Positions 7,585 through 25,579 of a stretch of 60,727 nt of DNA are shown here, piece by piece. The notes under the pieces are model-generated. The model searched no databases. It saw only the letters and a list, made by a program, of their open reading frames with translations, and was not told the origin of the DNA. Position 1 is the stretch's first letter, and every line of letters begins with the position of its first letter. The DNA is from a virus, in IMG/VR virus record IMGVR_UViG_3300032323_001975, positions 1 to 60,727 of that record; one strand, 5' to 3'. Position numbers and translations under genes: made by a program.

Positions 7585-8680
7585 GTATAATATCCATCAT
7601 CATTACGATAACATTGCAGCTTATCTAAAAACTATAACTTCAGAATTTGCATTAGCTTATTTTTTACCCTTTGGCTCAACAAAATATGAAAATATAGAAA
7701 GAATATTTAACGGTCACCGAGGACCAATAGTGCTATGTTATGATCAAGAACCACTGCTTTTTGAATATAACAAAACTCTTTTTGATAAATTTTTCCAAAA
7801 CAAAATGCAGGAACGTCCTGTTATATTACTTAATACAGAAAAAACTAGTGAAGAAAAAAATTTAATACTTAAACGATATAATTTTTTTGAGGCCAGTTGT
7901 TTCTTTCATATTTTCGCAGCTTCAGATTGGTACAGAGGTTATCAATATGATTATAACATCAAACCTTTAAAAGATCGAGAGATAACTCATCTATACATCT
8001 CATTTAATAGAATCACAGGAAGTGCTAGAAGTTATAGAACATTATTTGTAGCAGAACTCCTTAAAAATTCTTTACTGGACAAAGGTCATTTAAGTTTCAA
8101 CTTTATTTGTCCTGAACATGGATCTTCATTAGCCAACTTAGAATTGTTAGTCAATTCATATAATGTTGATTATTCTTATGTAAAAGAAATAACTAATTTT
8201 GTACCAACTAAAAATTTTAAAATAGAAACATTGGACGAAATTCCAAACGGAAGTTCTTACATTGGTGCATTACCGCAAACTATGCAAAGTTTTTGTCAAG
8301 TAGTTACTGAAACTTGTTTTTGGGAAAATAAAACTCATTTAACAGAAAAAATATTTAAACCAATTGTGTGTAAGCAACCATTTTTATTGTTAGGTTGTAC
8401 AAATAATTTAAAATATTTAAAAAGCTATGGATTTAAAACTTTTGACAAATGGTGGGACGAAAGCTATGATTCAATTGAAAATCCTATAGAAAGAATACAA
8501 ACTGTTGTTTCGATTCTTAAAAAATTATCTTCATTGACAAATAATCAGCTGAAAGAATTATTGTTAGAAATGGAAGATACATTAGAGTACAATTTTAATT
8601 TATTTTATAGTCAAAACTTGCTTAATAAAGGTTGGGAAGAATTAGAATCTAATCTTCAGTTTGCAATTTCTCAATTGTGA
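7583..8680 (+). CDS. GT10-like glycosyltransferase family protein
   Basis: A 365-residue AT-rich gene. Its C-terminal half carries the family core LTEKIFKPIVCKQPFLLLG (E255/K256) followed by YGFKTFDKWWDESYDSI, nearly identical in order to the genes at 19897-20856 and 59279-60442. The EK and PxLLG pattern resembles the donor-sugar site of GT10 fucosyltransferases, so a sugar-transfer role is likely but the donor is unknown. No membrane segments are seen. Its start codon shares two bases with the divergent gene on the other strand and its end overlaps the convergent dCMP deaminase by 32 bases, so its promoter must lie inside other genes. An AATAAATT sequence at 7544-7551 is a one-mismatch late box. 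Confidence 0.65.
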   Translation: MYNIHHHYDNIAAYLKTITSEFALAYFLPFGSTKYENIERIFNGHRGPIVLCYDQEPLLFEYNKTLFDKFFQNKMQERPVILLNTEKTSEEKNLILKRYNFFEASCFFHIFAASDWYRGYQYDYNIKPLKDREITHLYISFNRITGSARSYRTLFVAELLKNSLLDKGHLSFNFICPEHGSSLANLELLVNSYNVDYSYVKEITNFVPTKNFKIETLDEIPNGSSYIGALPQTMQSFCQVVTETCFWENKTHLTEKIFKPIVCKQPFLLLGCTNNLKYLKSYGFKTFDKWWDESYDSIENPIERIQTVVSILKKLSSLTNNQLKELLLEMEDTLEYNFNLFYSQNLLNKGWEELESNLQFAISQL

Positions 8681-9077
8681 CACCAGACTTTTCTAGAAAC
8701 TCTACTCCCTCCACAGATCTATACTCATCTTTATATATAACATGATTTATTCCAGACTGATAGATCAATTTTGCACACTCAATACACGGAGCATGAGTAA
8801 TGAACATATAGGCACCGTTGCCGGATTCTGTTGAACGTGCTAATTTAGAGATAGCATTCATCTCGGCGTGTAATACCTCCGGTTTAGTTTTTAAACTACC
8901 ATCCTCGGATGTATCTTCGCAAATATTACTCCAGCCAGCTGGCATTCCGTTATAACCAATTGAAATAATTCTATCATCTTTGACAATTATACAACCAACT
9001 TTTAATCGTCGAGCATGACTTAATTCTGCAAAAGTTTGTGCAGTCTTTATGTAAGCTTGTTTAAATTTTTCTTTCAT
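8649..9077 (-). CDS. cd: Deoxycytidylate (dCMP) deaminase
   Basis: Zinc-dependent deamination of dCMP to dUMP, feeding thymidylate synthase. The 142-residue protein has the cytidine/dCMP deaminase zinc site: H70 and catalytic E72 in LHAEMNAI, and C98 and C101 in APCIECAKL. It is shorter than T4 Cd (193). It is the last gene of the long minus-strand modification cluster; its ATG overlaps the stop of the kinase gene before it. Its 3' end runs 32 bases into the convergent gene and no terminator hairpin is evident. Together with thyA at 142-1059 it completes the dCMP to dTMP route within the window. Confidence 0.93.
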   Translation of the reverse strand: MKEKFKQAYIKTAQTFAELSHARRLKVGCIIVKDDRIISIGYNGMPAGWSNICEDTSEDGSLKTKPEVLHAEMNAISKLARSTESGNGAYMFITHAPCIECAKLIYQSGINHVIYKDEYRSVEGVEFLEKSGVTIEKLQTED

Positions 9078-9490
9078 TGTGCAATTATTTGTTCATAAAT
9101 TGTTCGTGCCCATCGTCCTGCATCTTGTTCAGTCACTCTGATATTGTAATAATCAGGCGCAACAAATACTTGATTGGTATCTTCAAATCTACCTTCAGTC
9201 ACGGTATCTACCCAAACAATAAAATGCGGATCGTAGATTCCTCGCATTTCTGGTAAAGGACAAACAAAGTCTGCTATAACGTATTTTGTCCCTGCACGGT
9301 CGGCTAACTGTCTCATTCTACGACTTTGTCGTAATCTGCCGTCGGGACTAAAATCCCAATCGTTATATTTTTTTCTTACCTCATCAGCATTAAGCCAGAT
9401 TACATCAGGATTTAAATAGTTCATTAAATTACGAGCAATCGTAGTTTTACCTGCACCTGGTAAACCCATAATTAAAATACGTTTGGTCAT
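9074..9490 (-). CDS. APS-kinase-like P-loop kinase
   Basis: A 138-residue P-loop protein with Walker A GLPGAGKTT (residues 9-17). After it come features seen in adenylylsulfate kinases (CysC): LNADEVRKKYNDWDFSPDGR and RQSRRMRQLAD, then ADFVCPLPEMR. If it is a true APS kinase it would phosphorylate adenylylsulfate to PAPS, the donor for the sulfotransferase at 20837-21415 in the same cluster. It is shorter than cellular CysC (about 200), with the C-terminal part compressed. It overlaps both neighbours by ATGA. Other small-molecule kinases of the same fold are possible, so the substrate is an inference. Confidence 0.72.
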   Translation of the reverse strand: MTKRILIMGLPGAGKTTIARNLMNYLNPDVIWLNADEVRKKYNDWDFSPDGRLRQSRRMRQLADRAGTKYVIADFVCPLPEMRGIYDPHFIVWVDTVTEGRFEDTNQVFVAPDYYNIRVTEQDAGRWARTIYEQIIAQ

Positions 9491-10962
9491 GAAAAAACTT
9501 TTACTCCATACATCTGCTCAAATCTATCTGCGTCTACACGATCATTGACCATCGGCTCTCCTCGAATATTTAAGCTAGTATTAAGTAACATTGGACAATC
9601 AGTTATTAAAAACCATTTCTCCAATAGCTCTCTTATTCCTGATCCATCTCGCGGAACCGTTTGAACTCTGCTGGTATCATCAGCATGGCATATAGCAGGG
9701 TAACGGTCAGGATACCTGCAACGAGCGACTGACTGCATATAACGACTAGTACTCCACCCAGGACTGAAATCAAAATACTGATCAGCCATTTCTTCAAGTA
9801 TGACAGGGGCAAAAGGTCTAAATTTTTGTCTGCGTTTAATTTCATTTACACGATCCTTAATATGAGGTCCTCTAGGGTCAGCAAGTAAACTTCGATTTCC
9901 TAATGCACGTGGCCCGAACTCAGCACGGCCGTTAGCCACCCCAACAATACCATCATTAAGTAAACTATCAAGTAGTCTATTCGTTGGGTACGCTCCGCTA
10001 ATTTCATGCCCAAGATAAGCGTTAACCCAGTTCAGACGACGACCATAAACGAGTGCTGCGGCACCAAGACTACTGCCGGCATCGCCGGGATTAGGCATAA
10101 TCCAAATGTTATCAAAGTATTCACCGAGGTTCCTATTTGCCAAACAATTTAAGGCTACTCCCCCCATATAAACAAGATTATTACTCCATTTAAAATCTCT
10201 TGCTCTACGCATTACATTATATATTAGTTTTTCAACAGTCTTTTGGGTAGCAGCAGCGATATCTGCTTTATGAACATTTTCGAATAACAAATTTTCAGTG
10301 CCTATATGCAAATTATGTTTAAATGTTGCTTCCCATTCATTATCAATTAAAGAATCTTGTAAGGATGCCGTATACCCTGTTTTACCATAAGCACTCATTC
10401 CCATTAAGATATATTCATCCTCGTTGGGTTTCAGTCCTACTTGTTCAGTCATTGCCGAGTAAAACAATCCAATGCTATGAGGATATTTTTGTGACCATAA
10501 TTTTTTATAATATGCATAGCCCTGGCTATCATACTTAGCACCAAAAATACTAATAGTATCCCACTCGCCAATTGCGTCAATCACTACAACTGTAGCATGA
10601 TTATACAAACTTGTTTGGAATCCTGCTGCCGCATGACTTAAATGATGATCAAAAGAATGAATAGAACAATTATATTTCTTTTTTAATTCTTGTGCTACAC
10701 ATTGAGTCGCAGTTAATCTATCCCATTGTATTCCTTCGCCAGAATACATTCTGCGTAGTTGTTTTTTCCAGGGTTTCTCATAGTAAGCTAAAGCATTGAT
10801 ACTGTATTGTTCTAAATCCTTAAATAGATCAGGACTAATATGAGCATCGTTTTTTAATTTACTATAACGCTCACTATGTGCAGCAAACAATATATCACCT
10901 TGTCTATTCACCACACTTACAGCAGCATCATGAAATCCCGCACTTATTCCTAATATGTTCAT
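9487..10962 (-). CDS. NodU/CmcH-family carbamoyltransferase
   Basis: A 491-residue enzyme expected to transfer a carbamoyl group from carbamoyl phosphate, through carbamoyl-AMP, to a hydroxyl group, usually on a sugar or secondary metabolite. The N-terminal domain shows MNILGISAGFHDAA, DHHLSHAAAGF (D105, H106, H107, H110) and ILMGMSAYGK. The C-terminal domain shows GRAEFGPRALGNRSLL and PFAPVI. It is somewhat shorter than NodU (about 570). It overlaps the upstream SGNH gene by 35 bases; the start is fixed by the conserved first residues. The acceptor is unknown. Its place among glycosyltransferase, sulfotransferase and SGNH genes suggests carbamoylation of a glycan or of a radical-SAM product. 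Confidence 0.92.
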   Translation of the reverse strand: MNILGISAGFHDAAVSVVNRQGDILFAAHSERYSKLKNDAHISPDLFKDLEQYSINALAYYEKPWKKQLRRMYSGEGIQWDRLTATQCVAQELKKKYNCSIHSFDHHLSHAAAGFQTSLYNHATVVVIDAIGEWDTISIFGAKYDSQGYAYYKKLWSQKYPHSIGLFYSAMTEQVGLKPNEDEYILMGMSAYGKTGYTASLQDSLIDNEWEATFKHNLHIGTENLLFENVHKADIAAATQKTVEKLIYNVMRRARDFKWSNNLVYMGGVALNCLANRNLGEYFDNIWIMPNPGDAGSSLGAAALVYGRRLNWVNAYLGHEISGAYPTNRLLDSLLNDGIVGVANGRAEFGPRALGNRSLLADPRGPHIKDRVNEIKRRQKFRPFAPVILEEMADQYFDFSPGWSTSRYMQSVARCRYPDRYPAICHADDTSRVQTVPRDGSGIRELLEKWFLITDCPMLLNTSLNIRGEPMVNDRVDADRFEQMYGVKVFS

Positions 10963-11575
10963 AAATTTTTTCGGCTATAATTTCATGTCCTTGCTCGAGC
11001 GGATGTCCATTTGGTCCATGTGGCGTCCCGTATGTCCATTTTGCTACACTAGTAAACATATTATCAACGAACATTGAATGATCAATTGCACTGATTAATC
11101 TCTCAAATTGTTTGTAATAATGAGTATGACTCAGCTGAGATCCACAAGCAACAAACATAACACAAGGTATTTTATGCAATTTACATAAACTTTGAATTAA
11201 AATAATTTGTCTAAGCCAATCTGCATAATAATATTTTGGAGTATCATATGCTGTCATGTATTTAATTAAATTAATTCTATGTGTTGGATCTTGTAGTTTG
11301 AATGCCTTATAATTTCTCCCGGCCCAAATATCATATATTCCAATGTCATCTGCAAATTCTTGCCTGTTACAATCTGACCACCCTATAATGATCAATTCGC
11401 TTTTATTATTCACAGCATCTATCGCTCGTTTGACCATCCGCTTGTTACCACTGGCCGGTTTTCCTAAATTTGTAATTTGCTTGCCTATTTTCTTAGACAG
11501 AACAGAAGGCCAGGCTTGCTCTTGGCTAGATAATTCATCGCCATATGTAAAACTATCACCAATTGCATAAATCAT
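10928..11575 (-). CDS. SGNH-hydrolase-like protein
   Basis: A 215-residue protein of the SGNH/GDSL esterase fold. The nucleophile block is AIGDSFTYGDE (S8), followed by a glycine block LGKPASGNKR, a strand IIIGWSDCNRQE, and near the C-terminus GHPLEQGHEIIAEKI, where the Asp-x-x-His site is replaced by a conserved HPLEQGH shared with the gene at 11645-12193. Members act as esterases or acetyl-hydrolases on carbohydrates and lipids, or as acetyltransferases; which applies here is unknown. There is no signal peptide, so it acts inside the cell or in the virion. It is translationally coupled to the 33-codon gene before it. Confidence 0.72.
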   Translation of the reverse strand: MIYAIGDSFTYGDELSSQEQAWPSVLSKKIGKQITNLGKPASGNKRMVKRAIDAVNNKSELIIIGWSDCNRQEFADDIGIYDIWAGRNYKAFKLQDPTHRINLIKYMTAYDTPKYYYADWLRQIILIQSLCKLHKIPCVMFVACGSQLSHTHYYKQFERLISAIDHSMFVDNMFTSVAKWTYGTPHGPNGHPLEQGHEIIAEKIYEHIRNKCGIS

Positions 11576-11673
11576 TTGTATATAAAAGGGTCTCTTTTAC
11601 GTAGTTCACGTAATTTACGTCTGTATTTTATTTCTAGTCTGATTCTAGACCAAAGATTTTTTAACCAATTCAT
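11572..11673 (-). CDS. 33-residue basic small protein
   Basis: A short frame starts with ATG inside the end of the upstream SGNH gene (29 bases of overlap) and stops with TGA overlapping the ATG of the next SGNH gene (ATGA). It fills what would otherwise be the only gap of this size in the cluster. The product begins MNWLKNLWSRIRLEI and ends RKRDPFIYK, a strongly basic helix with W and R residues followed by a DPFIY tail. Tails of this type occur, to my recollection, in small hypothetical proteins of T4-like marine phages. The function is unknown; the fit at both ends is the main support. Confidence 0.6.
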   Translation of the reverse strand: MNWLKNLWSRIRLEIKYRRKLRELRKRDPFIYK

Positions 11674-12193
11674 TGAATCGTTCTTTCATTAAATTTGCTG
11701 CATCTTGATGTGCTTGTTCAAGTGGATGATTTTCTTTTCCACAGTCGTACTTATTCTCTACAGCCCATTGATAAAAACCTCTTGGGCTTTCTGTTTGGTC
11801 CGGGCCCAGACCCGGTGGAAACATAAACCAATTTGTGTAATCTAACTTTCTTGTAATTACACAATTATCAGCACAAGTAAAGATATAAGGTATACTATAA
11901 TATTGTAGGTGATCTTGTAAATTCTTAATGTGAAAATCACTATCTAAAGTATTATCTCTGCTAGGCCAAGTCCAACACACCATAACTAGGTCGGGACTGG
12001 ACCAAACTAGCATTTCTCTAACTCTATACGCTATTTCTCTATTACCTAATCCAGGATAGGCTGCACACAAGTAATTATCTGCCAACAGCGCCGGAAAGGT
12101 TCTACGACTAAATCCGTCAGGTCCACCGTTAGGACTGTCGGCCAATTCGCTCCCCCATATAAAACTATCACCCCCGGCTAGAACTGTAGTCAT
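11645..12193 (-). CDS. SGNH-hydrolase-like protein (second copy)
   Basis: A 182-residue relative of the protein encoded at 10928-11575. The nucleophile block is LAGGDSFIWGSEL (S10), then YPGLGNREIAYRV, LVMVCWTWPSRDN and the shared C-terminal ENHPLEQAHQDAANLM. The pair differs mainly in the middle. Catalytic Ser, Gly and Asn positions are visible, while the usual Asp-x-x-His is replaced as in the other copy, so both may share an altered triad or be non-catalytic. Its start overlaps the preceding unknown gene by 26 bases. Two adjacent copies after the radical SAM array suggest acyl or acetyl addition or removal in the same pathway. Confidence 0.7.
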   Translation of the reverse strand: MTTVLAGGDSFIWGSELADSPNGGPDGFSRRTFPALLADNYLCAAYPGLGNREIAYRVREMLVWSSPDLVMVCWTWPSRDNTLDSDFHIKNLQDHLQYYSIPYIFTCADNCVITRKLDYTNWFMFPPGLGPDQTESPRGFYQWAVENKYDCGKENHPLEQAHQDAANLMKERFNELVKKSLV

Positions 12194-13262: not shown

Positions 13263-14526
13263 CGGCTCTCTTTGATAATATTTCGTCCATAGTGATAGAC
13301 TGTGTACGAATAGATTCTAATTTTAACACACGAGCCTTACCCTTTGCAATACCTTGTTGATATTGTTCTTCGCCATATTGTTCTTGAAAGGTAGGGCGTG
13401 TCTTAAGCTGAACTAGTATATCCTTCATTGGTCCGGCTACTCCGGCGTTAATGATTTCATCTACCCAAGGATCTAATATCGTTCTAGGTAGGGCCAAAGG
13501 TGACATAACTATGTCCGGCGAAAAACTAAAGACAACCTTTGCCAGGATGTCAACGCCTAACTCGTCGGCTAACCGCTGCATATTTTTGACTTCAAACATA
13601 CCCGGGAGGGTAAGTGTGAAATCCAATCTCATTTGCCTCCGGTGCGTTGAGATTCTAATTCCTTTCTTAAAATTGTCAATCCATGTTTCATAATCAAGGC
13701 CTGTTCGGATATATTCTCCAATCTCTCCTGTACCATCGATACTGGCACAAATTTGCCAATCACGCAAATAATTGAGTATATCTTTATAAAGATTACAACC
13801 TCTATAATCAATGCGGCTAAGATTAGTATTGTATCTAGCATAAACACGTGGTCCATCTCCTAGTTCTATTATTCTTCGCATATACCGCCAATGCTGTTCG
13901 TACATTAACGGTTCACCTCCGACCCAATATATCTCTTCTACACGGTGGTTCTCTACTGCGTCTGCGAACTCTGCTTCAATTTGAGTTGTCTGGAACTGTT
14001 CAATATGCTTTTTGATCTCAGGTTTCATCCAATTGTTTTTTGGGTCCAACCAATTGACCATATCGTGTTGTCTTTGTTCACTTTCCCACGAACTGGACAA
14101 CATATCACCGCATGTGCGGCATTTAAAGTTACAGAGATTACTAAATCTATAATCCCAGGAAACAGGTTTCATAGTTGTATGTCCTGTTTCATCAGTGTTC
14201 TCTAACACCTGTAAATACTTATGTCCAAACAAATTATTAAAATAACTGCGGTAAACATCTGTATTAAGAAGTTTATTGTTACATACTTCACATTCTGATA
14301 ATGTTTCTCCGGCTAACATACGTCTACGTACACTACGCATATGTTCGCCATTCCAATGTTCTTCAAGTTTAATTGGTTTATACTGACCAGAGCCAGAAGC
14401 AGTGTCTATATACTGTTTAAAATTTTGTGAGGGTTCACGGCTTGCACAACAAAGACGTCTTTCTGTTTGTGGACTTAAATAGGTATGTGTCCATGGGGCC
14501 ATACATAATGTTTCTGGTCTATTCAT
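13231..14526 (-). CDS. Radical SAM protein, twitch type (array member 5, type A)
   Basis: A 431-residue radical SAM enzyme, last of five in transcription order. The SAM-binding [4Fe-4S] motif is C132, C136, C139 (NLCNFKCRTCGD), and YWVGGEPLM a little further on is the GGE motif. In front of the SAM domain is an N-terminal cysteine region, LCMAPWTHTYL, a CC pair and SECEVC, of the kind found in twitch-domain radical SAM proteins; it may hold a second Fe-S cluster. I start it at 14526 (MNRPETLCMAPW), matching the start of the neighbour at 14519-15733; an ATG at 14538 would add four residues. The product is unknown. Confidence 0.85.
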   Translation of the reverse strand: MNRPETLCMAPWTHTYLSPQTERRLCCASREPSQNFKQYIDTASGSGQYKPIKLEEHWNGEHMRSVRRRMLAGETLSECEVCNNKLLNTDVYRSYFNNLFGHKYLQVLENTDETGHTTMKPVSWDYRFSNLCNFKCRTCGDMLSSSWESEQRQHDMVNWLDPKNNWMKPEIKKHIEQFQTTQIEAEFADAVENHRVEEIYWVGGEPLMYEQHWRYMRRIIELGDGPRVYARYNTNLSRIDYRGCNLYKDILNYLRDWQICASIDGTGEIGEYIRTGLDYETWIDNFKKGIRISTHRRQMRLDFTLTLPGMFEVKNMQRLADELGVDILAKVVFSFSPDIVMSPLALPRTILDPWVDEIINAGVAGPMKDILVQLKTRPTFQEQYGEEQYQQGIAKGKARVLKLESIRTQSITMDEILSKRADVYEWWTSIS

Positions 14527-15733
14527 AACCCATTGCAATAGCTATTTCTGGATGAGTATCTTTAAAATTTTGCCTGCGATACACGTCGGCCTTTTTCATT
14601 TTTCTAAGAAATTCTTCACCGTTACTACCTGGACCATTTTCTATAAATTGAATTATATTGTTTATTTCTTGCTGATATTTTGTTGATTTCCAAACAGTAT
14701 TTTGCAATTTGTTAATAACCATTTTTTTTGCGTTTAGAGTCATATATTGTATACTCATATGATCTGGACTATGTAACATGTTAAAATAAACATCTCCAAA
14801 TTTTTTTGTATTTGCCCAATCTAAAAGTTCATCTAGATAGTATACGTTTTGTATATTAACTGTAAAACAGAGTTGAGTAGTGATATTAGTCTGTGACTTT
14901 TTCATCATATGTACAGTATCAATAATCTCGTTGGCCTTTGTCCAATTGGCACCGTATCTTTCGTATTCAAATCTTTTTCCAACATTATCTACGCTAAATG
15001 CAATATCAACTCGACCAAAATCTTTCCACAAAGCAATTAAATCTTCAGGCCATTGTGTTGCATTAGTATTGTAATGTATATCGATGTGTTTACTATCACC
15101 TGTTTTAACAGCAAACTCGAGTAAATCAATGTGCTCTTGAATAAGAAAAGGTTCGCCGCCAGTAAATTCAAGGTACTTTATATTAGGTAATAATTGTCTT
15201 AGATTTTCCCAAAAAAGAGTATTTGGATTTTGTGGCCAGGCACCTTGTTTTAGCCATTGATAAGCAATATGCTGTTTTTTGTCATATCCAATTGGCATAT
15301 ACTTTAATTCTTCGTCTGCCCATTTACTACTAGACCACGACCCGCATATTCTACATTTTAAATTGCAAATATTACCTAACTTAAGATCAAGAAACCATAA
15401 CTGATTTGGATTATCGTTTTGCCAATCAACCAATGATACTAGTTCTTTTAATCTTACTTTGCTATTAATTCTTTTACTAGTTCTGCCTGCGGCCTCTTCG
15501 TCCCAACATAATTTGCAAGTGGCAGGTTTTTCTCCGGCAAGAAATTGTCTGCGAAGATTTTGCATATACTGGCTGTGATAGATAGTTTCTAAGGTATCTT
15601 TGTTTAAATCAAATTTAATTCCGTCGTTTTGTGTAATTTCTTCTCTAGCTAAACAACAAGGTCTAGCTGTACCTATCGGAGTAGTTTCTATGCTAATCCA
15701 CGGCAGCATACAAATTGTTTTAGGTAGATTCAT
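14519..15733 (-). CDS. Radical SAM protein, twitch type (array member 4, type A)
   Basis: A 404-residue radical SAM protein. The cluster motif is C123, C127, C130 (NICNLKCRICGS), and YLEFTGGEPFLI supplies the GGE. The N-terminal cysteine region begins at the start codon (MNLPKTICMLPWISIE), followed by a CC pair and ATCKLC. It is the closest in layout to the gene at 13231-14526, and their overlapping ends show translational coupling. The sequence is more AT-rich than its downstream neighbour. No peptide-precursor gene is evident next to it. The reaction is unknown; phage-borne twitch proteins of this layout have no assigned substrate that I can name. Confidence 0.85.
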   Translation of the reverse strand: MNLPKTICMLPWISIETTPIGTARPCCLAREEITQNDGIKFDLNKDTLETIYHSQYMQNLRRQFLAGEKPATCKLCWDEEAAGRTSKRINSKVRLKELVSLVDWQNDNPNQLWFLDLKLGNICNLKCRICGSWSSSKWADEELKYMPIGYDKKQHIAYQWLKQGAWPQNPNTLFWENLRQLLPNIKYLEFTGGEPFLIQEHIDLLEFAVKTGDSKHIDIHYNTNATQWPEDLIALWKDFGRVDIAFSVDNVGKRFEYERYGANWTKANEIIDTVHMMKKSQTNITTQLCFTVNIQNVYYLDELLDWANTKKFGDVYFNMLHSPDHMSIQYMTLNAKKMVINKLQNTVWKSTKYQQEINNIIQFIENGPGSNGEEFLRKMKKADVYRRQNFKDTHPEIAIAMGYE

Positions 15734-17180: not shown

Positions 17181-18532
17181 AATGTCTGATACCAATCTGC
17201 TATAACAGGAAATGTATTTACAAAGTTTTTATTGCGGCGCTGATCATATTGTGTATAGAATTGCTTAAAATCGTTTCTTAATTTAGGTAAATCAAATGCT
17301 TCGCTGTGTGGTGTTTTAACCACATCTAAATAATCTACAAGTCTCTGTAGCTGATTCCATTCATATTCATGTAAGTAATTACTGCCTCTATGGTTAGTCA
17401 TAAACTGATCAAGTTGATCTCTATACTTGGTACGTAGCTCATCAGGTAATACTAATGCAGATTGAAAACTAGGAAAGCGTAGTATGTTTAACGAAAAATT
17501 AACTGCATCCTTGCCATAACAAATTTTCCAATTGATTACACATTCTAAAAAGTCTACTAGACTGTCCAAACACAATGCATTTATGGTACACATAATATGC
17601 AATGCTCTTAATTTATTATCAATTTGATTATCAAGTATGAGCTCTACAGTATTAGCCCAATCGTCCCAAACCAATCCATCTCTAATATACTCTGCATGAC
17701 TGCCGACACTTTCATTACTAGTGTATAGGTCAATGGGTGAGTCCACACTGTTAAATAGACGATCGAGATCAACTTGAGCTCCTAGATTAGAATTAATTGC
17801 CAATCTTGTTTTGCTTCGGCCTCGATTATTTTTAAACCAATCGAGTAATTGCCAGGTATATCCTGACATCAATGGTTCACCTCCGGTAATTCTCAATTCA
17901 TTTAAGGTTCTGTGGAGATCTGATTCCCACCATTGGAAGAAGGCCGTGACGTATGGGTTATTTTCACCAAATTTAAAAAGCTGCGAACTGTCATGGCTAT
18001 GAGTAAAATGATTCCTACCGTCAGACACCAGATCCACGTAGGGTCCATTGTTATTAATGTCTTTGACCCAAGTACTACTGAACGCAGGATTGCAATAAGA
18101 GCAAGCAAACTGACAAGTACGGTCAAAACTGATTTCAAGAGTGCGAAGATTGACATCTTCTGTTGGGGATGTTCTAAATGCATTATCAAGATCCTCATCT
18201 GAATAAATTACTGTTTTGTAAACACGATCGCTAATATTGTCGCGCCCGATGTCTTCTATCTTCCAGCAGTATTCACAACCTGCAGGTCTTTCACCTGCTT
18301 GCATTTGACGACGCTCCTCTTTCTTTTTAACAGTATTATGCAATGCACGAGGATTTGCTTGCACTTCTTCCACACCAACTCGATGAGGCAACGGATGATG
18401 ACAACTCGTGGTCATGCCACTGCCTAACCATATAGTAGCGTTATACCATTTTGCTCCGCAGAATGATTCGGACTTAATGTCGATTACTCTACGCTTGTAT
18501 TCTAAATCTGTTTCGTTATTAATTTTGGGCAT
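17177..18532 (-). CDS. Radical SAM protein, twitch type (array member 2, type B)
   Basis: A 451-residue radical SAM protein with C140, C144, C147 (RTCQFACSYCNPAF) and LRITGGEPLMSG. Its N-terminal region differs from the type A genes: FCGAKWYNATIWL, then SCHHPLPHR, RALHNTVKKKEERRQM and GCEYCWKIEDIG. It shares this layout with the gene at 18519-19904, so the two form a separate subtype. The start overlaps the upstream stop by 14 bases. The second TSCHHP and CEYCW cysteines probably bind an auxiliary cluster, as in the related twitch or SPASM folds; this is inferred from spacing. Confidence 0.85.
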   Translation of the reverse strand: MPKINNETDLEYKRRVIDIKSESFCGAKWYNATIWLGSGMTTSCHHPLPHRVGVEEVQANPRALHNTVKKKEERRQMQAGERPAGCEYCWKIEDIGRDNISDRVYKTVIYSDEDLDNAFRTSPTEDVNLRTLEISFDRTCQFACSYCNPAFSSTWVKDINNNGPYVDLVSDGRNHFTHSHDSSQLFKFGENNPYVTAFFQWWESDLHRTLNELRITGGEPLMSGYTWQLLDWFKNNRGRSKTRLAINSNLGAQVDLDRLFNSVDSPIDLYTSNESVGSHAEYIRDGLVWDDWANTVELILDNQIDNKLRALHIMCTINALCLDSLVDFLECVINWKICYGKDAVNFSLNILRFPSFQSALVLPDELRTKYRDQLDQFMTNHRGSNYLHEYEWNQLQRLVDYLDVVKTPHSEAFDLPKLRNDFKQFYTQYDQRRNKNFVNTFPVIADWYQTL

Positions 18533-19904
18533 GATACCTACATTCTTCCCAGAATTCTCGCATTTCTGGAAATGTCTTTAAAAAGTCTGTGTCTCTACGT
18601 TTGTCATGTTCATTAAAAAATCTATAAAAGTCGCCTCGTTGTATTTTAACATACTCATTATCTAATTTACTACCTTCTTGCATCCAATCTACAACTCGTT
18701 GCATTCTTTGCACTTCGTAATCTTTGAACCCTTGAAATGGGCGTTTGGGTGTTTCTAAATTTGCCTGCATCCAATCTATCACATCTTGTAATCGTTTAAC
18801 ATAAACCGGCGGAAGTATCTGTAAACTTTGCCACGTGGGTTGTCTTAATATAGGAGTGTCAAACCAAACTCTTTGATATGTAGAACTGTGTAATCTTCGT
18901 AACGAAAGAATAGTTTCCAATTGCCTTTTTAACCCTAGCACACTGAGATTGTTCATAGTAATAATAAACGTCAAACTATTACGATAGGGAATGTGTTTTA
19001 AGAAATAGTCAACTCTCGCTAATACCCTTTTAAATTCCATTCCGTGTCTAATATATTCGGCATGCTCGGGGATTCCTGAATCTAAACTCACATACTGCAT
19101 GAAATGTTCTATATTAGTGTTACATAACTGACTAACATAACCAAAATATTGTTCCCATAACTTTTCTTCTATACTAAAATTACTTGTCACATCAATATGC
19201 AAGTCAGGTTTAGGAAATGCTAATATATAATCAAATACACGATAGGTATTACGATCCATTAGTGGCTCGCCGCCGGTCATTCTAAAGTGTTTAAGCTTGG
19301 GGTATAAACTAGGCCACCATTCCCAAAAAGCGTCAACGTAAGGATTCTGCTCACGTGCTGGGATAATTTTTCTGTCCCCAGAAAAATAACTAGGGTCATT
19401 ATGAAGATTACTTGTGGGATAAGCTCCGTACCTAGCAACTTCATCGGCCCAACTGCTACTAAACTGTGGACTGCAATAACTACACTTAAGGTTGCAAGCG
19501 TGATTAAAATTGACTTCCACATAACTTGGAATTGTATCTTCTTGTCCTGTAAAATTTCTAATTTCTTCATAATGTTCTGCCGCCCAGGGCTCTCCACTTC
19601 TATAATGTCTGTCGCTTAGATTGCCTAAGTCCTCTTGAGTCCAGCAATAACTGCACTCGCGTGGACGCTCGTTGTTTAGCATAAGTACACGCTGTTGCTT
19701 CTTATGCTCTGTATTGTGTAACGCACCTGGATCTAGTTTAATTGCATCAGCATCAATCTTATGTAACGGAGGATGATAGCAACTATTGTTAAGTCCAGTT
19801 GGCAAGTGCAGGCTTACTTGTTTCCACTTAGCCAAGCAGAGTGCAGGACCTAACTTGTCCTTCATTTCATATGCGGCTGACATAAAATTACTTTTATTAT
19901 CCAT
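18519..19904 (-). CDS. Radical SAM protein, twitch type (array member 1, type B)
   Basis: A 461-residue radical SAM protein, first of the array to be transcribed. The SAM motif is C137, C141, C144 (HACNLKCSYCSPQF) and the GGE is in FRMTGGEPLMDR. The N-terminal region (SCYHPPLHK, GALHNTEHKKQQRVLM, ECSYCWTQEDLG) matches the neighbour at 17177-18532, pointing to a tandem duplication. The start ATG overlaps the end of the GT10-like gene by eight bases. The substrate is unknown. Its position directly after glycosyltransferase and sulfotransferase genes would fit a sugar or peptide substrate equally well. Confidence 0.85.
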   Translation of the reverse strand: MDNKSNFMSAAYEMKDKLGPALCLAKWKQVSLHLPTGLNNSCYHPPLHKIDADAIKLDPGALHNTEHKKQQRVLMLNNERPRECSYCWTQEDLGNLSDRHYRSGEPWAAEHYEEIRNFTGQEDTIPSYVEVNFNHACNLKCSYCSPQFSSSWADEVARYGAYPTSNLHNDPSYFSGDRKIIPAREQNPYVDAFWEWWPSLYPKLKHFRMTGGEPLMDRNTYRVFDYILAFPKPDLHIDVTSNFSIEEKLWEQYFGYVSQLCNTNIEHFMQYVSLDSGIPEHAEYIRHGMEFKRVLARVDYFLKHIPYRNSLTFIITMNNLSVLGLKRQLETILSLRRLHSSTYQRVWFDTPILRQPTWQSLQILPPVYVKRLQDVIDWMQANLETPKRPFQGFKDYEVQRMQRVVDWMQEGSKLDNEYVKIQRGDFYRFFNEHDKRRDTDFLKTFPEMREFWEECRYHAQN

Positions 19905-20856
19905 TTAACTTAACACTATTATCATTGATATTTTGCAATAAAGTTCGATTGTAATCTAGAACCGACGACATATCATCTAGCACAGACTCCATCTTGTTTA
20001 TATCCCACTTGTATATGTCTTCTAAGATTTTTCTAATCTCAACTATTCGTTCAAATCCGCTTTTATCGTCGTAGCTTTCGTTCCACCACTTATCAAATGT
20101 TTTAAACCCAATTCGTTTCATATTACCAAGATACCCGCATGGGCCCATTACAATAAATGGCGTCCTTGCTATAATTGGACGAAAGGTTTTTTCAGTTGGG
20201 AAAAATGTTAATCCAGTTACGTATGTTTCTGAAACCAAATCGAGAAAAATATTGTGATATGTTTTAATGATATTATAATGAGTTGGGGGACCAATTGTGT
20301 AATTTAAAAACCCCTCATCTAGTGTTAACGGGCAGGATGGCAAAAATTCTACAACTGATGATAATTCTTCTTGTGCAAACATGTTAATACCAGTTAATTC
20401 GCTATCAAGTTGGTGTCTCTCAGATGTTGAATCATAGTGTAGCGTCATTAAAGTTTTATCTTTATAGTTATGATATAGCCATGCAGAATTAACTAATCTA
20501 TGCCAATTTGGTTTCCCATGAAAGCAACCAACAGTATATTGTAAAGTCTTGGCTTCAAGTGGTATAGAAAATGCAAACTTTGATTTAGATATCCAATGAT
20601 TTCCTTTGATTACAATATTGTAATCTGAATTATATTCTTCGACGTTATTAGTGTATATGGTTACTACTTTCTTATCAATGCCCCATTGTTCACATACAAA
20701 ATCTAATACTTGGTAAAAATCTGTAGATTTCAAACACAAACCTTCGCCATTGGTACTAATATGGATACTGCCGGTTTGTTGATATTCTTTAATAATGTCA
20801 GATACCTTGTTTGGCAAATTAAAAATAAGACGGTCTTTATTTGGAAGATAAATCAT
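19897..20856 (-). CDS. GT10-like glycosyltransferase family protein
   Basis: A 319-residue member of the four-protein family in this window. The core reads PTEKTFRPIIARTPFIVMG (E222/K223) followed by IGFKTFDKWWNESYD. The strand, EK and PFIVMG pattern resembles the donor site of GT10 fucosyltransferases. The N-terminal half is unlike the other copies, as expected if acceptors differ. It has no membrane segment. It overlaps the sulfotransferase upstream by 20 bases and the first radical SAM gene downstream by eight, so it is in the same operon. Glycosyl transfer is inferred; the sugar is unknown. Confidence 0.68.
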   Translation of the reverse strand: MIYLPNKDRLIFNLPNKVSDIIKEYQQTGSIHISTNGEGLCLKSTDFYQVLDFVCEQWGIDKKVVTIYTNNVEEYNSDYNIVIKGNHWISKSKFAFSIPLEAKTLQYTVGCFHGKPNWHRLVNSAWLYHNYKDKTLMTLHYDSTSERHQLDSELTGINMFAQEELSSVVEFLPSCPLTLDEGFLNYTIGPPTHYNIIKTYHNIFLDLVSETYVTGLTFFPTEKTFRPIIARTPFIVMGPCGYLGNMKRIGFKTFDKWWNESYDDKSGFERIVEIRKILEDIYKWDINKMESVLDDMSSVLDYNRTLLQNINDNSVKLNG

Positions 20857-21415
20857 TTTTTGTAATTAATTCCATAAGTTCTGAATAATTGCTCGGTTTG
20901 CTATATAACACATATCTTGAGTCAATGATATCTAAGTCCTCGTAATAAACTGTACAATCTACATCATTCCATTTTGTTAATAGCTGCTGATTCATATCAT
21001 GTATATACATCGATATGTTGTTTAGTTCCGTTTCATTGATTGGGATAGAATACTCTGTTTGTTGTTGAAGTTTATGGTAATGCCATTTTTGTGTCATATG
21101 ACAGATATAAAAACTAGCAATCTGTTTACTAACATCTCGTCGTATTAATCGAATTTTGTATGCACTATTTAGGACGGAAGCTATTGTATTGTTTGTCTTA
21201 GTTGTAACGTGGTCGGGCATAATTTTAGCCACATAACGTAAACCAGAATTATAGTGATGTAGAAAATTATTGTATCTATCAGGTATAGACCGATGAAAGG
21301 CTTCATCAAAATTTTTAATGCCATTGCTTGATGCAATATAATCACACAGTGCTGTTGATCCAGTTCTATACGATGACAACACCGCTACAGATTTTTCCAA
21401 AGGGATATTGATCAT
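20837..21415 (-). CDS. Sulfotransferase-like protein
   Basis: A 192-residue protein with the two PAPS-binding hallmarks of sulfotransferases: a P-loop-like 5'-phosphosulfate segment VLSSYRTGSTALCDYI near residues 12-27, and a 3'-phosphate segment KIRLIRRDVSKQIASFY. It would transfer sulfate from PAPS to a hydroxyl or amine, most likely on a sugar given the neighbours. It is shorter than most carbohydrate sulfotransferases (about 250-300), with the C-terminal part reduced. The start overlaps the preceding stop (ATGA). The APS-kinase-like gene at 9074-9490 could supply its donor. The acceptor is unknown. Confidence 0.75.
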   Translation of the reverse strand: MINIPLEKSVAVLSSYRTGSTALCDYIASSNGIKNFDEAFHRSIPDRYNNFLHHYNSGLRYVAKIMPDHVTTKTNNTIASVLNSAYKIRLIRRDVSKQIASFYICHMTQKWHYHKLQQQTEYSIPINETELNNISMYIHDMNQQLLTKWNDVDCTVYYEDLDIIDSRYVLYSKPSNYSELMELITKNDLSSK

Positions 21416-22311
21416 TCTTTTGCCATTACACCTTTGTTTTTAAATTGGCTTTGGTAATGGTGCTTAAAGAATCGGCTTTGTTCAGGCGTGTATGTGACAA
21501 TAGGCAATTCTAGTCTAGTGGTCAATGCACTTTCGATTCTTTCGCAGCTTTCTTTGGGATCGTCTTGGCTAAAACTTGACCATAACTTTTCCAACATATC
21601 AAAGTCCTGTACATAATGATGATCCCAATTTTCAAGCATGATCATGTATGTTCCCAGTCTGGCTCCGTACATGGCCCAATAACCATTTTCAACATCTGCA
21701 CCTACTGAATGCCAAATGCATAAATGATCGTAGTTGCGATTATTAACTTTTTCTTCAAACTCTGCTAGTGTGGGTTTGTGCCCGCGATCTAGACACATCT
21801 TTACCCCTTCACGAAAACCAGCACGCCATGCTTGTTTGGCGCTACCGTTAGGGTGTGTGGTAGAATAGCAGTTATGCATTGCTGTATACTTGGGATCAAA
21901 ACAAAACTCCACGGCAGTTTCTTCATCACCGCGACTTGCTTCGTGTGTACGCATGTTATAAACAAAGTCCCGGGTCCAGCAACTTACACCACCGTTGCCA
22001 TAACGAAGTCCGTTGATTACATTTCTTGCCTTCCATCGAAAAACGTGATCACGATTAGTTTCGTTCAGCGATAACTGTAAATTAAAAAATTCCGAGTCCG
22101 GTATGTTATCACCATCAATAATAACAAAGCGTTCTGTATCGCTTGCTGCTGCGGCGGCTTTGTGTGCTGCGTCAGACCCTTTAATGCCATCTACCCTCTT
22201 TGCCCATGGAACCATGTTTTGAATACGAATCCAAAACTCTTCTTTTTTAGGTTCGTCATAAGTTAGAAAAATACAATCTAAATCTGCTATATCAACTATT
22301 TGTTCTGTCAT
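21412..22311 (-). CDS. GT-A-like glycosyltransferase (DGD motif)
   Basis: A 299-residue protein with a GT-A-type nucleotide-sugar fold inferred from an N-terminal CIFLTYDEPKKEEFW segment, the AKRVDGIKGSDAAHKAA helix, and a metal-binding D66-G-D68 (RFVIIDGDNIPD). Further motifs are RNVINGLRYGNGG and QAWRAGFREGVKM. The same order, without the DGD, appears in the C-terminal part of the 872-residue protein at 4966-7584. No membrane segment is present. It overlaps both neighbours by 20 bases or fewer. Glycosyl transfer is likely; donor and acceptor cannot be read. Confidence 0.68.
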   Translation of the reverse strand: MTEQIVDIADLDCIFLTYDEPKKEEFWIRIQNMVPWAKRVDGIKGSDAAHKAAAAASDTERFVIIDGDNIPDSEFFNLQLSLNETNRDHVFRWKARNVINGLRYGNGGVSCWTRDFVYNMRTHEASRGDEETAVEFCFDPKYTAMHNCYSTTHPNGSAKQAWRAGFREGVKMCLDRGHKPTLAEFEEKVNNRNYDHLCIWHSVGADVENGYWAMYGARLGTYMIMLENWDHHYVQDFDMLEKLWSSFSQDDPKESCERIESALTTRLELPIVTYTPEQSRFFKHHYQSQFKNKGVMAKE

Positions 22312-22666
22312 AAAATTCTATTTCTCTATGTTGTTCATTTTCGTATAAAATAAGGGCCGCATGACCTTTAACTGTTCTATAACCTGTGCTTGATTTTTTT
22401 AGTTTAACTTTGTTTGGTATATGCGGATCAATAATTTTAAGTTCCTTGTTAACTACACGCAGCCAATTTGTGTTATTTTTATGAAATTGATCCGGATGTT
22501 CGATTATAATATAGTTGTCGCCTACCGGAAATCCATTTTCCCATAATCCTATAACAGTTCCGTCATCATTGTAATACAACCTGTATTCTTTTATCAGTTT
22601 AGGCCTATTTTTATCATATTCCTCAACTAATCGAAAAGCTTTTATTAATTCATCATGAGGATTCAT
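22292..22666 (-). CDS. Small hypothetical protein
   Basis: A 124-residue protein starting MNPHDELIKAFRLVEEYD. It has a charged helix, then a beta-rich part with YNDDGTVIGLWENGFPVGDN and IIEHPDQFHKN. No catalytic motif, cysteine pair or membrane segment is seen. It overlaps its neighbours by 14 and 20 bases. Proteins of this pattern appear, to my recollection, in T4-like cyanophages without a function. Position between glycosyltransferase-like genes is the only hint. Confidence 0.6.
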   Translation of the reverse strand: MNPHDELIKAFRLVEEYDKNRPKLIKEYRLYYNDDGTVIGLWENGFPVGDNYIIIEHPDQFHKNNTNWLRVVNKELKIIDPHIPNKVKLKKSSTGYRTVKGHAALILYENEQHREIEFYDRTNS

Positions 22667-23486
22667 AATATAATATCATTTTATCTATATCAAAATTTTT
22701 ATCGTAAAGATGCAAGGGATGATATTGATTTATATTGTTTATTCTAAACATTCCTTGATCGAATTCTGTTAAAAAAACATCATTAATGCAATAGCTTTCA
22801 TTGTAATTATTAATAGCAGGTTTCAAATGTGTAAAATTTATAAAATCTGCTGCCGGTAAAGTAGTTAGTTCTCTTCCAAGTATATGCGAACAAATAGAAT
22901 AAACAAGGTCTGTAGTAGGATACTCTTCGTCACAATATTTAAAATTTTCTTTAATTATTTCCCAATTATCAAAAATTATTCTAGCAGTGTTAAAAAATTT
23001 AAGTGCATTTGACGAATATCTGAAATACATCAATCCATTAAAGACATCAGGTAAATTATTATCGTCAAAAATTTTTCTATATTTTCGATTATTACTTATT
23101 TCTTGCTTATAATCTCTACAACCCAAACTTAAAACTATATCTTTAAATCTAAGCACATTCCACCAATGATCAATATTTCTTGTTAAAATTATATCAGATT
23201 CTAATTTAATGGTTTCTTTAAACGGTGAACACCAAAATGCCTGTGGTTCTAATGCAAAGACATTTTTTTCAGACGATTCTTTTAATTCAATTATGTAATC
23301 AAATATTTCTTTGTGTTGAGTTGAAATATCTTTTTTTGTATTTGCGTCAACAATAACGGCAACTTTATTGATCTTTTGTGTTTTTTTGATACTAAGTGCC
23401 TGTAAGTAAGCTAGTCTTAAATAGTCAACTGTGTTACTGTTAACCGCTAATGTTACAAATCCCTGTTGTTCTTTATGCCAACTCAT
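22653..23486 (-). CDS. GT8-like glycosyltransferase (putative)
   Basis: A 277-residue protein with a GT-A look. The N-terminus GFVTLAVNSNTVDYLRLAY resembles the first strand and helix of glycogenin-type enzymes. The usual metal-binding DxD is represented by E96-S-D98 (IKLESDIILTRNIDHWW), and VFNGLMYFRYSS follows where GT8 enzymes have their FNSGV segment. The altered DxD leaves activity uncertain. It overlaps the next GT8-like gene upstream by 14 bases, and the two may be ancient duplicates. Base composition is very AT-rich. The acceptor is unknown. Confidence 0.55.
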   Translation of the reverse strand: MSWHKEQQGFVTLAVNSNTVDYLRLAYLQALSIKKTQKINKVAVIVDANTKKDISTQHKEIFDYIIELKESSEKNVFALEPQAFWCSPFKETIKLESDIILTRNIDHWWNVLRFKDIVLSLGCRDYKQEISNNRKYRKIFDDNNLPDVFNGLMYFRYSSNALKFFNTARIIFDNWEIIKENFKYCDEEYPTTDLVYSICSHILGRELTTLPAADFINFTHLKPAINNYNESYCINDVFLTEFDQGMFRINNINQYHPLHLYDKNFDIDKMILYYESS

Positions 23487-24267
23487 TTAAAATCTTTGTA
23501 TAAAAAAGTTCAAAGTTTTCGCTTTGTAGATATGATTTACTCATTACATGTAAATTTGTCCTTGGCAAGACATAACTTTTTTCTGTGTCCTTTACAATAA
23601 TTTTATTATCCTTTAAATCCATACTTTTGATAGGTTGGTTTATCGACAACATGCTACCGGGAATAGAATTGTTATCAATTGAATACCCATTTAATATAAT
23701 ATCAGCTATAGCAAACGCATAATCGTTTCTGTAAATACGTTCGGTAATATTAAATAACAATCGATAATATTGATAATTTTTCTGTATTCTTTCAATTAAA
23801 TTAAAATACAGTTTTGCTTTTTTTGTTTTTCTAAAAGCAAAAACAGTTGCCCATACGTATGGGTGACTGTAAACACCCATGGTATTTGGCCATTCGGTAG
23901 TCAAAGCATGACTTTTTCTTTGTAAAATATAATCCCACGATGTATTAAAAATTTTTAGTATATCATCATTTAAAATTAAATAGTCTGCATCAATAACCAG
24001 TGTTTCATCATAAGGCGAAAAATTGTAAACACTATGCCTTCCAAAATTCCTCCATTCAACAAATTTATCTAAATCTATATCAAACCTACTGTTATAGAAT
24101 GTTTTATCATCTAAATTAGTAACTAGTGTAAATGGTAAATCTAAAACTTTTGAAGCAATAGTTAACGTTTTATTAGCAATATTTTCATAATTAGTGCTTG
24201 AGGTGTTTAAAGCAAATGCAACAATACCTCTAGATTTTTCTAATTTTTTTAAGTTCTTCATATTCAT
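23473..24267 (-). CDS. GT8-like glycosyltransferase (putative)
   Basis: A 264-residue protein with a GT-A pattern. After a lysine-rich start comes GIVAFALNTSSTNYENIA, then a long strand and helix region and a clear metal-binding D93-A-D95 (DETLVIDADYLIL). Later residues SWDYILQRKSHA and WATVFAFRKTKKA fit the acceptor side of GT8-like folds. The DxD is intact, unlike the downstream neighbour at 22653-23486. The start lies 38 bases inside the preceding gene. The sugar is unknown. Confidence 0.6.
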   Translation of the reverse strand: MNMKNLKKLEKSRGIVAFALNTSSTNYENIANKTLTIASKVLDLPFTLVTNLDDKTFYNSRFDIDLDKFVEWRNFGRHSVYNFSPYDETLVIDADYLILNDDILKIFNTSWDYILQRKSHALTTEWPNTMGVYSHPYVWATVFAFRKTKKAKLYFNLIERIQKNYQYYRLLFNITERIYRNDYAFAIADIILNGYSIDNNSIPGSMLSINQPIKSMDLKDNKIIVKDTEKSYVLPRTNLHVMSKSYLQSENFELFYTKILNELA

Positions 24268-24544
24268 TATGCCAGCGATTCATTACTAATTGATAGTGCT
24301 GCTGTGCTGTCACTAAAAAAATTTGTTTATCAATTTTAATAGGATTTTCGTAAACATCTTCAAGATATATTTCATCGGTTGGCCAAGTTTTTACAAATGC
24401 TAGTATATCTGGAGTGATCTTGAATAATCCCCCATTGTGTGTCATGTGCAGATCAGTTTGTATTTTTTCTTTAAGGATTTTTTTGTTAATTTGAAAATCC
24501 GTGGATAAACGAATTTCTTCAACTAGTTCATCTAATGTGTTCAT
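24230..24544 (-). CDS. Small hypothetical protein at the head of the modification operon
   Basis: A 104-residue protein beginning MNTLDELVEEIRLST and ending in a charged helix EYEELKKIRKI. It is the first gene after the sigma70-type promoter at 24567-24595, and its ATG follows the -10 hexamer by about 22 bases, giving a very short leader with no clear ribosome binding site. Similar small proteins are, to my recollection, common in T4-like cyanophages. I cannot assign a function; a regulatory role is possible from its promoter-proximal place but is only a guess. Confidence 0.6.
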   Translation of the reverse strand: MNTLDELVEEIRLSTDFQINKKILKEKIQTDLHMTHNGGLFKITPDILAFVKTWPTDEIYLEDVYENPIKIDKQIFLVTAQQHYQLVMNRWHNEYEELKKIRKI

Positions 24545-24555
24545 AAAAAGATTAT

Positions 24556-24579
24556 GTTAGCATAACAATATATGCTAAC
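24556..24579. repeat. Perfect 9-bp inverted repeat overlapping a promoter
   Basis: GTTAGCATA and TATGCTAAC face each other across a 6-base ACAATA loop. The repeat lies between the end of the virion operon and the start of the modification operon, and covers the -10 and probable start of the promoter read to the left. It could be an operator for a dimeric repressor. It could also be a terminator hairpin for the virion operon: on the minus strand it is followed by ATAATCTTTTT, but it is AT-rich and the T-run starts six bases after the stem. Confidence 0.6.
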
Positions 24580-24595: not shown

Positions 24596-24604
24596 TTGAA
24601 TTGA

Positions 24605-25567: not shown

Positions 25568-25579
25568 CTTTATTACCTT

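What the first reader, a model, noticed from the sequence alone, without database searches (positions are those of the whole stretch)
8649..24544. A 16 kb early-type operon combining radical SAM, sulfate, carbamoyl, SGNH and glycosyl functions
A single run of overlapping genes couples sugar transfer, sulfation, radical chemistry, acyl-ester chemistry, carbamoylation and PAPS supply. It seems to be read from an early-type promoter rather than a late one. That points to building a small molecule, or remodelling host surface or cell content, soon after infection, more than to virion assembly.
Basis: partly seen in the sequence, partly recalled or inferred. Interest (0 to 1): 0.75.

Follow-up and report, generated by a model that had tools for sequence, protein, structure and literature searches.

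The report
Early-promoter sugar-tailoring operon beside tail fibres
Large uncultured water-borne phages carry, next to their tail-fibre genes, a conserved 16-kb set of enzymes (five related radical-SAM enzymes, sugar transferases, a carbamoyl transferase and exchangeable decorating enzymes) switched on by an early-type promoter, and they probably use it to build and attach an unusual sugar decoration during infection.

Summary
Window 24544-8649 (- strand) carries 18 genes; 16 of 17 junctions overlap and one has a 69-nt gap. They encode five paralogous N-twitch radical SAM enzymes, GT-A/GT8-type glycosyltransferases, a NodU/TobZ-type carbamoyltransferase and two SGNH proteins. The sulfotransferase and the 'APS kinase' are weak assignments, and the sulfotransferase is rare.

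Comparative data support the early-type promoter. TTGACA-N17-TATAAT lies before the first gene in 33 of 39 relatives (shuffles 4.6%) and in 28 of 49 further ones (3%). Its -10 box usually sits inside a terminator-like hairpin. Tail genes upstream carry the T4-type late motif NATAAATA instead.

The gene order recurs across jumbo T4-like records, with slots that exchange SGNH, methyl-, amino-, sulfo- and radical SAM enzymes. All five radical SAM groups have relatives in one Bacteriovoracaceae cluster. rS5 and GT299 relatives lie in Bdellovibrionota surface-glycan loci; rS3, carbamoyltransferase, SGNH, epimerase and UGDH relatives lie together in Bacteroidota loci.

Best reading: an early-transcribed, soluble glycan-tailoring and transfer pathway. 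The acceptor is undecided, tail-fibre adhesin or host envelope. DNA hypermodification is disfavoured. It extends the known 'host recognition cluster' of T4-like aquatic phages.

The parts
24545..24604 (-). Composite control region: TTGACA-N17-TATATT sigma70-type promoter (24595-24567) whose -10 overlaps a 9-bp hairpin (24579-24556) followed by a T-rich stretch and the first ATG
   Evidence: RNA fold -12.3 kcal/mol, z -3.95
24230..24544 (-). U104, small conserved protein of unknown function, first gene of the operon
   Evidence: present in 72 of 80 GT264-anchored loci
23473..24267 (-). GT264, GT8-like putative glycosyltransferase
   Evidence: profile match to GT277, HHalign 98%; core gene
22653..23486 (-). 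GT277, GT8-like putative glycosyltransferase
   Evidence: weak but consistent glycogenin matches, E 0.015; core gene
22292..22666 (-). U124, unknown
   Evidence: 57 of 80 loci
21412..22311 (-). GT299, GT-A fold glycosyltransferase, one of the most conserved genes
   Evidence: AlphaFold pLDDT 85; Foldseek to WrtF/RmlT/TarP; VIA-align Z 8.6 to cellulose synthase
20837..21415 (-). SulT, Stf0-like sulfotransferase (sub-threshold), in variable slot 1
   Evidence: homologue found in 1 of 80 loci
19897..20856 (-). GTf319, putative sugar transferase of a family also at 7583-8680(+) and 59279-60442(+), in variable slot 1
   Evidence: no Pfam or PDB match
18519..19904 (-). rS5, N-twitch radical SAM enzyme
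   Evidence: NF033640 298 bits; invariant Cys
17177..18532 (-). rS4, N-twitch radical SAM enzyme
   Evidence: NF033640 280 bits; invariant Cys
15720..17195 (-). rS3, N-twitch radical SAM enzyme
   Evidence: NF033640 392 bits; 78 viral relatives
14519..15733 (-). rS2, N-twitch radical SAM enzyme
   Evidence: NF033640 354 bits
13231..14538 (-). rS1, N-twitch radical SAM enzyme (TTG start)
   Evidence: NF033640 287 bits
12168..13262 (-). U364, conserved protein of unknown function; weak cyclophilin-like barrel
   Evidence: pLDDT 87; VIA-align best Z 8.7, near background; phage relatives in BFVD
11645..12193 (-). SGNH2, SGNH-like protein in variable slot
   Evidence: GDS motif by eye; no family hit
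10928..11575 (-). SGNH1, SGNH/GDSL-type (DUF6071)
9487..10962 (-). CarbT, NodU/TobZ-type O-carbamoyltransferase
   Evidence: PF02543+PF16861; phrog_1601; PDB O-carbamoyltransferases incl. GdmN and TobZ
9074..9490 (-). kin, small P-loop kinase (AAA_33 / APS-kinase-like N-terminal half)
8649..9077 (-). dCMP deaminase, last gene; overlaps the convergent gene at 7583-8680(+)
   Evidence: PF00383 1.6e-23
24605..27172 (-). fib320 (24605-25567) and fib530 (25580-27172), tail-fibre-type genes regularly upstream of the cassette; late motif CATAAATA 30 nt before fib530
4966..7584 (-). GT872, large repetitive protein whose C-terminal part is homologous to GT299
   Evidence: BLASTP E 1e-11

Best explanation
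The segment is an early-transcribed, soluble glycan-tailoring and glycan-transfer pathway. Host sigma70 RNA polymerase starts at the promoter before U104; read-through RNA from the late tail operon is expected to stop at the hairpin in which the -10 box lies (shown as conserved sequence, inferred as function). The five radical SAM enzymes act as a co-inherited set that modifies sugars or glycosides (inferred), and the carbamoyltransferase, SGNH proteins and exchangeable slot enzymes add further groups (inferred). The GT-A/GT8-type transferases (GT264, GT277, GT299, GT872) then assemble and transfer the product in the cytoplasm (inferred). The acceptor is most likely the phage's own tail-fibre adhesins (about 0.45 of this reading), otherwise the host envelope through host export machinery (about 0.35).
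For: Core order fib530-fib320-U104-GT264-GT277-GT299 in 72-80 of 80 loci, even at about 30% identity where the radical SAM genes are absent or different. Conserved slots exchange SGNH, methyltransferase, aminotransferase, radical SAM and sulfotransferase-like genes. Five radical SAM orthogroups, each with an invariant N-terminal Cys set and CxxxCxxC, each forming a clade with close relatives in one Bacteriovoracaceae cluster. Bacterial relatives: GT299-rS5 beside GT2- and DegT-type genes, and rS5 beside ABC-exporter-type genes (ORFs named by sequence inspection); rS3 with CarbT, SGNH, UbiA-type prenyltransferase, epimerase and UGDH. N-terminal twitch matches BtrN, an aminocyclitol dehydrogenase. 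Cultured Vibrio phage K566 pairs radical SAM genes with GT8 genes. No clear membrane segment in the cassette. Promoter classes.
Against: No expression or chemical data. GT264/GT277 assignments are weak, and the GTf family has no match at all. Twitch/SPASM radical SAM enzymes often act on peptides. An early promoter is not what one expects if the only job is fibre decoration. In the Bacteriovoracaceae cluster the five radical SAM genes have no obvious glycosyltransferase neighbour. General bacterial neighbours are mixed: 109 families in 95 ORFs.
Confidence: 0.6

Rival explanations
1. Host-surface remodelling: the early enzymes alter lipopolysaccharide or capsule precursors of the host so that competing phages cannot adsorb, or so that progeny are not trapped on debris.
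For: Early-type promoter insulated from the late tail operon; bacterial relatives in envelope-polysaccharide-type loci; authors of a pelagimyophage survey favour host O-chain modification for the analogous genes (PMC7029224).
Against: No flippase, polymerase, exporter, lipid-carrier transferase or clear membrane segment in the cassette; stable linkage to tail-fibre genes in very divergent phages.
Confidence: 0.25
2. DNA hypermodification: carbamoyl and sugar groups are placed on hydroxymethylpyrimidines in phage DNA, with the dCMP deaminase, kinase and nearby thymidylate synthase as precursor enzymes.
For: Carbamoyltransferase, dCMP deaminase and thymidylate synthase co-occur as in 5hmC-carbamoylating phages (PMC8670742); dCMP deaminase and kinase are the last genes of the operon.
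Against: Thymidylate synthase keeps Asn177 (dUMP type) in the window and in all 22 relatives that could be read; Tet/JBP not found in 34 records, though the control genomes also gave no signal; CarbT is only 24% identical to the 5hmC enzyme.
Confidence: 0.08
3. Peptide maturation: the radical SAM enzymes modify a phage peptide or structural protein, for example U104, U124 or fib320, in RiPP fashion.
For: SPASM/twitch-type Fe-S domains are frequent in peptide maturases; weak matches to SkfB-type maturases; small conserved U104 and U124 are in the operon.
Against: Some distant lineages keep U104 without the rS set within the flank read; bacterial relatives sit with sugar genes.
Confidence: 0.12

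Closest known systems
Host recognition cluster (HRC) of pelagimyophages and cyanomyophages (PMC7029224)
   Same: Large island by the tail fibres of T4-like aquatic phages with GT8-type glycosyltransferases and radical SAM cassettes
   Different: Here the order is strongly conserved, five radical SAM orthogroups are fixed, carbamoyltransferase is core, the phages include records up to 374 kb, and an early promoter nested in a hairpin is documented; the VrlC/gp14 borders were not tested
T4-like environmental viral genome with 12 radical SAM genes, TARA_ERS488813_N000010 (PMC5332604)
   Same: Many radical SAM genes in a T4-like marine phage
   Different: That paper treats them as Fe-S proteins linked to IscU/ATC; the section read describes no cassette, gene order or glycan context
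Radical SAM / GT8 block of Vibrio phage K566 (OZ196521)
   Same: Radical SAM genes alternate with GT8 genes in a 255-kb cultured phage
   Different: About 24% identity, different set and order, no carbamoyltransferase recognised in the block read
5hmC carbamoyltransferase modules (MetaGPA, PMC8670742)
   Same: Carbamoyltransferase with dCMP deaminase and thymidylate synthase nearby
   Different: Thymidylate synthase has Asn177, and the carbamoyltransferase lies among glycan genes, a setting that paper reports for unmodified contigs
T4 genes e, soc and 49 (own knowledge)
   Same: A promoter placed in a hairpin so that only locally initiated RNA escapes it
   Different: In T4 the nested promoter is late; here it is of early sigma70 type and the hairpin looks like a terminator

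Membership tests
NF033640 N_Twi_rSAM (five ORFs) | Score above the curated cut-off of 170 bits | tested here: met
   280-392 bits for rS1-rS5
NF033640 N_Twi_rSAM (five ORFs) | CxxxCxxC radical SAM motif plus N-terminal four-Cys twitch | tested here: met
   invariant in each orthogroup, 60-79 sequences each
NodU/TobZ O-carbamoyltransferase family | PF02543 and PF16861 domains | tested here: met
   139 and 157 bits
NodU equivalog | NF041651 score above 1000 | tested here: not met
   129.9 bits
Stf0 sulfotransferase | PF09037 gathering score of 22 | tested here: inconclusive
   21.5 bits with a PSB-like loop
APS kinase | Full-length PF01583 match | tested here: inconclusive
   30.9 bits over profile 4-89 of 152 only; AAA_33 scores higher
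Glycosyltransferase, GT-A fold (GT299) | GT-A fold in a confident model | tested here: met
   pLDDT 85; Foldseek E about 2e-4 to GT-A enzymes; VIA-align Z 8.6, rmsd 4.5 over 220 residues
T4-type late promoter at the cassette | NATAAATA before the first gene | tested here: not met
   absent in the window; 1 of 49 relatives
Early sigma70-type promoter at the cassette | TTGACA-N16-18-TATAAT conserved before the first gene | tested here: met
   33/39 and 28/49 loci at 10/12 or more, shuffles 3-5%
Early sigma70-type promoter at the cassette | Early transcription in infection | not testable with these tools
   no RNA data
5hmC carbamoylation module | dCMP-type thymidylate synthase homologue (Asp177) | tested here: not met
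   Asn in the window and in all 22 relatives read
Pelagimyophage host recognition cluster | Glycosyltransferases and radical SAM genes beside tail fibres of a T4-like phage | tested here: met
Pelagimyophage host recognition cluster | Location between VrlC and gp14 | not tested
   VrlC and gp14 were not sought

The most novel reading that the evidence does not exclude
Five radical SAM enzymes, shared as a set with a predatory-bacterium lineage, form a radical-tailoring line for one phage glycan that is installed on tail-fibre adhesins; exchangeable slots for acyl-, sulfo-, methyl- and amino-group enzymes give each phage its own adhesin glycan, a phage counterpart of flagellin glycosylation islands.
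Probability: 0.22. Interest if true: 0.85.

Novelty: new variant of a known kind. Interest (0 to 1): 0.6.

Why it matters
It puts a named, ordered and testable pathway behind the vague 'glycosyltransferase and radical SAM islands' of large aquatic phages. It indicates that an early-type promoter, not the late tail programme, drives it, and it links the enzymes to Bdellovibrionota and Bacteroidota surface-glycan loci, so both substrate and acceptor can be tested. The N-twitch radical SAM family has no assigned chemistry in the NCBIfam entry matched here, and a five-enzyme co-inherited set is a good entry point.

Tried and rejected
First genome scan with rS2 found nothing; an alignment of all radical SAM types was too diverse to scan with, so rS3 alone was used. 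TATAAATA with one mismatch over the whole window is no more frequent than chance; only exact NATAAATA in intergenic positions carried signal. DNA hypermodification was tested and disfavoured. Sulfation as a core function was rejected: SulT had no homologue in 78 loci, and Sulfotransfer_3 and Stf0 gave none in 34 records (the Stf0 and Tet/JBP searches had no positive control). U364 gave no Foldseek PDB match at E 0.001; cyclophilin-like barrels at Z about 8 are near background. Pfam on mixed GT264/GT277/GTf relatives was silent. Literature searches found no paper on this cassette. The moraphage lineage paper mentions four core glycosyltransferases but no radical SAM.
Full report
WHAT IS THERE. 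The window is a 60.7-kb IMG/VR virus record. It carries a T4-type tail module on the - strand (gp53, gp25, a gp6-type baseplate wedge, tail fibres) and a late sigma factor gp55 on the + strand. Directly after the tail-fibre genes fib530 and fib320, on the same strand, 18 genes run from 24544 to 8649. All junctions overlap by 4-38 nt except one gap of 69 nt. The genes encode U104, GT264, GT277, U124, GT299, a Stf0-like sulfotransferase, a GTf-type protein, five radical SAM enzymes (rS5 to rS1 in transcription order), U364, two SGNH proteins, a carbamoyltransferase, a small P-loop kinase and a dCMP deaminase.

CONFIDENCE OF THE ASSIGNMENTS. Radical SAM: all five exceed the NF033640 cut-off by more than 100 bits, and in each orthogroup both the CxxxCxxC motif and four N-terminal cysteines are invariant. 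Carbamoyltransferase: both Pfam domains, and solved relatives GdmN and TobZ. GT299: a confident model with a GT-A fold. GT277 has weak but uniform matches to glycogenin, and GT264 is its homologue. Sulfotransferase: just below threshold. Kinase: APS-kinase-like only in its first half. U104, U124 and U364 are unknown.

SYNTENY. Seventy-eight IMG/VR loci found with rS3 show one repeated order: fib530, fib320, U104, GT264, GT277, U124, GT299, slot, rS5, rS4, rS3, rS2, slot, rS1, U364, SGNH slots, CarbT, kinase, dCMP deaminase. The rS1-rS4 orthologues are at least 60% identical in 65-67 loci and rS5 in 57. Slots differ between phages: SGNH proteins, other radical SAM families, methyltransferase, class-III aminotransferase, AMP-binding and hexapeptide proteins by Pfam, and oxygenase- or epimerase-like ORFs by inspection. 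The window's sulfotransferase is such a slot gene, with no homologue in the 78 loci and one in a second set of 80. That second set, found with GT264, contains lineages at about 30% identity: fib530, GT277 and GT299 accompany GT264 in 76-78 of 80, U104 and fib320 in 72, rS5 in 56. The oldest part is therefore tail fibre plus U104 plus three glycosyltransferases, and the radical SAM set looks like an addition.

PROMOTERS. The 60 nt between fib320 and U104 hold TTGACA-N17-TATATT and a 9-bp hairpin over the -10 box. In 39 distinct relatives (window included) the best sigma70 score is at least 10/12 in 33 (shuffles 4.6%), and the -10 box lies within the stem-loop in 31; arm sequences differ but stay complementary. 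In 49 further upstream regions 28 pass (shuffles 3.0%) and one carries a late motif; before fib530-type genes 64 of 127 carry NATAAATA; inside the operon GT264, rS5, rS4 and rS3 have 0-3% sigma70 and no late motif. In the window all three intergenic NATAAATA sites lie 27-34 nt before str354, gp6 and fib530, and a 374-kb relative has late sites before the same three genes and the sigma70-in-hairpin site before U104, with further sigma70-in-hairpin sites elsewhere. Early-type transcription insulated from the late tail operon is therefore well supported as design, but not shown by RNA.

ORIGIN AND CONTEXT. Each of the five radical SAM orthogroups forms a clade with support 1.0 (that of rS1 includes two bacterial sequences). 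A single Bacteriovoracaceae genome cluster holds a nearest relative of rS1, rS2, rS4 and rS5, and one of the four nearest relatives of rS3. rS5-type enzymes occur in 46 of 116 genomes sampled from that class, rS1-type in 8. In Bdellovibrionota, GT299-type and rS5-type genes lie together with GT2-type, GT39-like, UGM-like, DegT or exporter-type genes (several of these names come from reading the sequences, not from family searches). In Bacteroidota, rS3-type genes lie with carbamoyltransferase, SxtJ-like, SGNH, UbiA, epimerase and UGDH genes. The flanks of the window itself carry two epimerase-like genes, a UGDH-like gene, DegT-type aminotransferases and a 2OG oxygenase. The cultured Vibrio phage K566 alternates radical SAM and GT8 genes.

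MECHANISM. I commit to a soluble, early-transcribed glycan-tailoring and transfer pathway (0.6). Shown: gene set, order, promoter classes, intact Fe-S motifs, glycan neighbourhood of relatives, no clear membrane segment (the highest window, in SGNH1, is borderline). Inferred: radical SAM chemistry on sugars, terminator function of the hairpin, and the acceptor. Tail-fibre adhesins are slightly favoured over the host envelope because of the deep linkage to fibre genes and the lack of lipid-carrier or export genes; the early promoter favours the host envelope. In T4, early genes also follow tail-fibre genes (own knowledge), so adjacency alone is weak.

RIVALS. DNA hypermodification predicts a dCMP- or dUMP-hydroxymethylase; the thymidylate synthase keeps Asn177 in the window and in all 22 relatives read, which excludes the dCMP type but not strictly a dUMP-hydroxymethylase, and the carbamoyltransferase is 24% identical to the 5hmC enzyme. 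Peptide maturation is possible by family but not supported by neighbourhood.

NOVELTY. Pelagimyophage host recognition clusters with GT8 and radical SAM cassettes are published, as is a T4-like genome with 12 radical SAM genes. I found no description of the conserved five-enzyme cassette, its bacterial counterpart or its nested early promoter. It is a new variant of a known kind.

Noticed in passing
window 24545-24604 and L190-L201 (374-kb record G009): Sigma70-type promoters with the -10 box inside a hairpin recur at other operon starts of the 374-kb relative (near 117428, 146247, 167563), so the nested design may be a general operon-boundary device of these phages.
   Followed up: partly
upstream of GT299 (22311) in relatives: 13 of 72 relatives have a sigma70-type site before GT299, suggesting an internal early promoter in some phages.
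   Followed up: no
window 30259-42966: A single 4235-aa ORF in the tail module between gp6 and the fibre genes, alignable to relatives.
   Followed up: no
window 4966-7584: 872-aa protein with repeated FDFxWxPDP-type segments and a GT299-like C-terminal part; syntenic GT872 relatives follow the cassette in many phages.
   Followed up: partly
window 7583-8680(+) against 8649-9077(-): Convergent genes overlap by 32 nt at the 3' end of the operon.
   Followed up: no
L118 15718-16680, L126 11151-12128, L233 8565-9626: A nucleotidyltransferase-like family (judged by eye, no Pfam match) lies beside rS4/rS5-type radical SAM genes in 10 of 24 Bdellovibrionota loci and might be their functional partner.
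   Followed up: partly
L231 3705-4787 and L080 14546-15727: A second radical SAM family (N-terminal CNASCPxC) occurs both in phage slots and in a Bdellovibrionota glycan locus (similarity judged by eye).
   Followed up: no
L187, L188 (Rickettsiales MAG contigs): Contigs binned as Rickettsiales carry the phage gene order fib530-U104-GT264-GT277-GT299, so they are probably phage.
   Followed up: no
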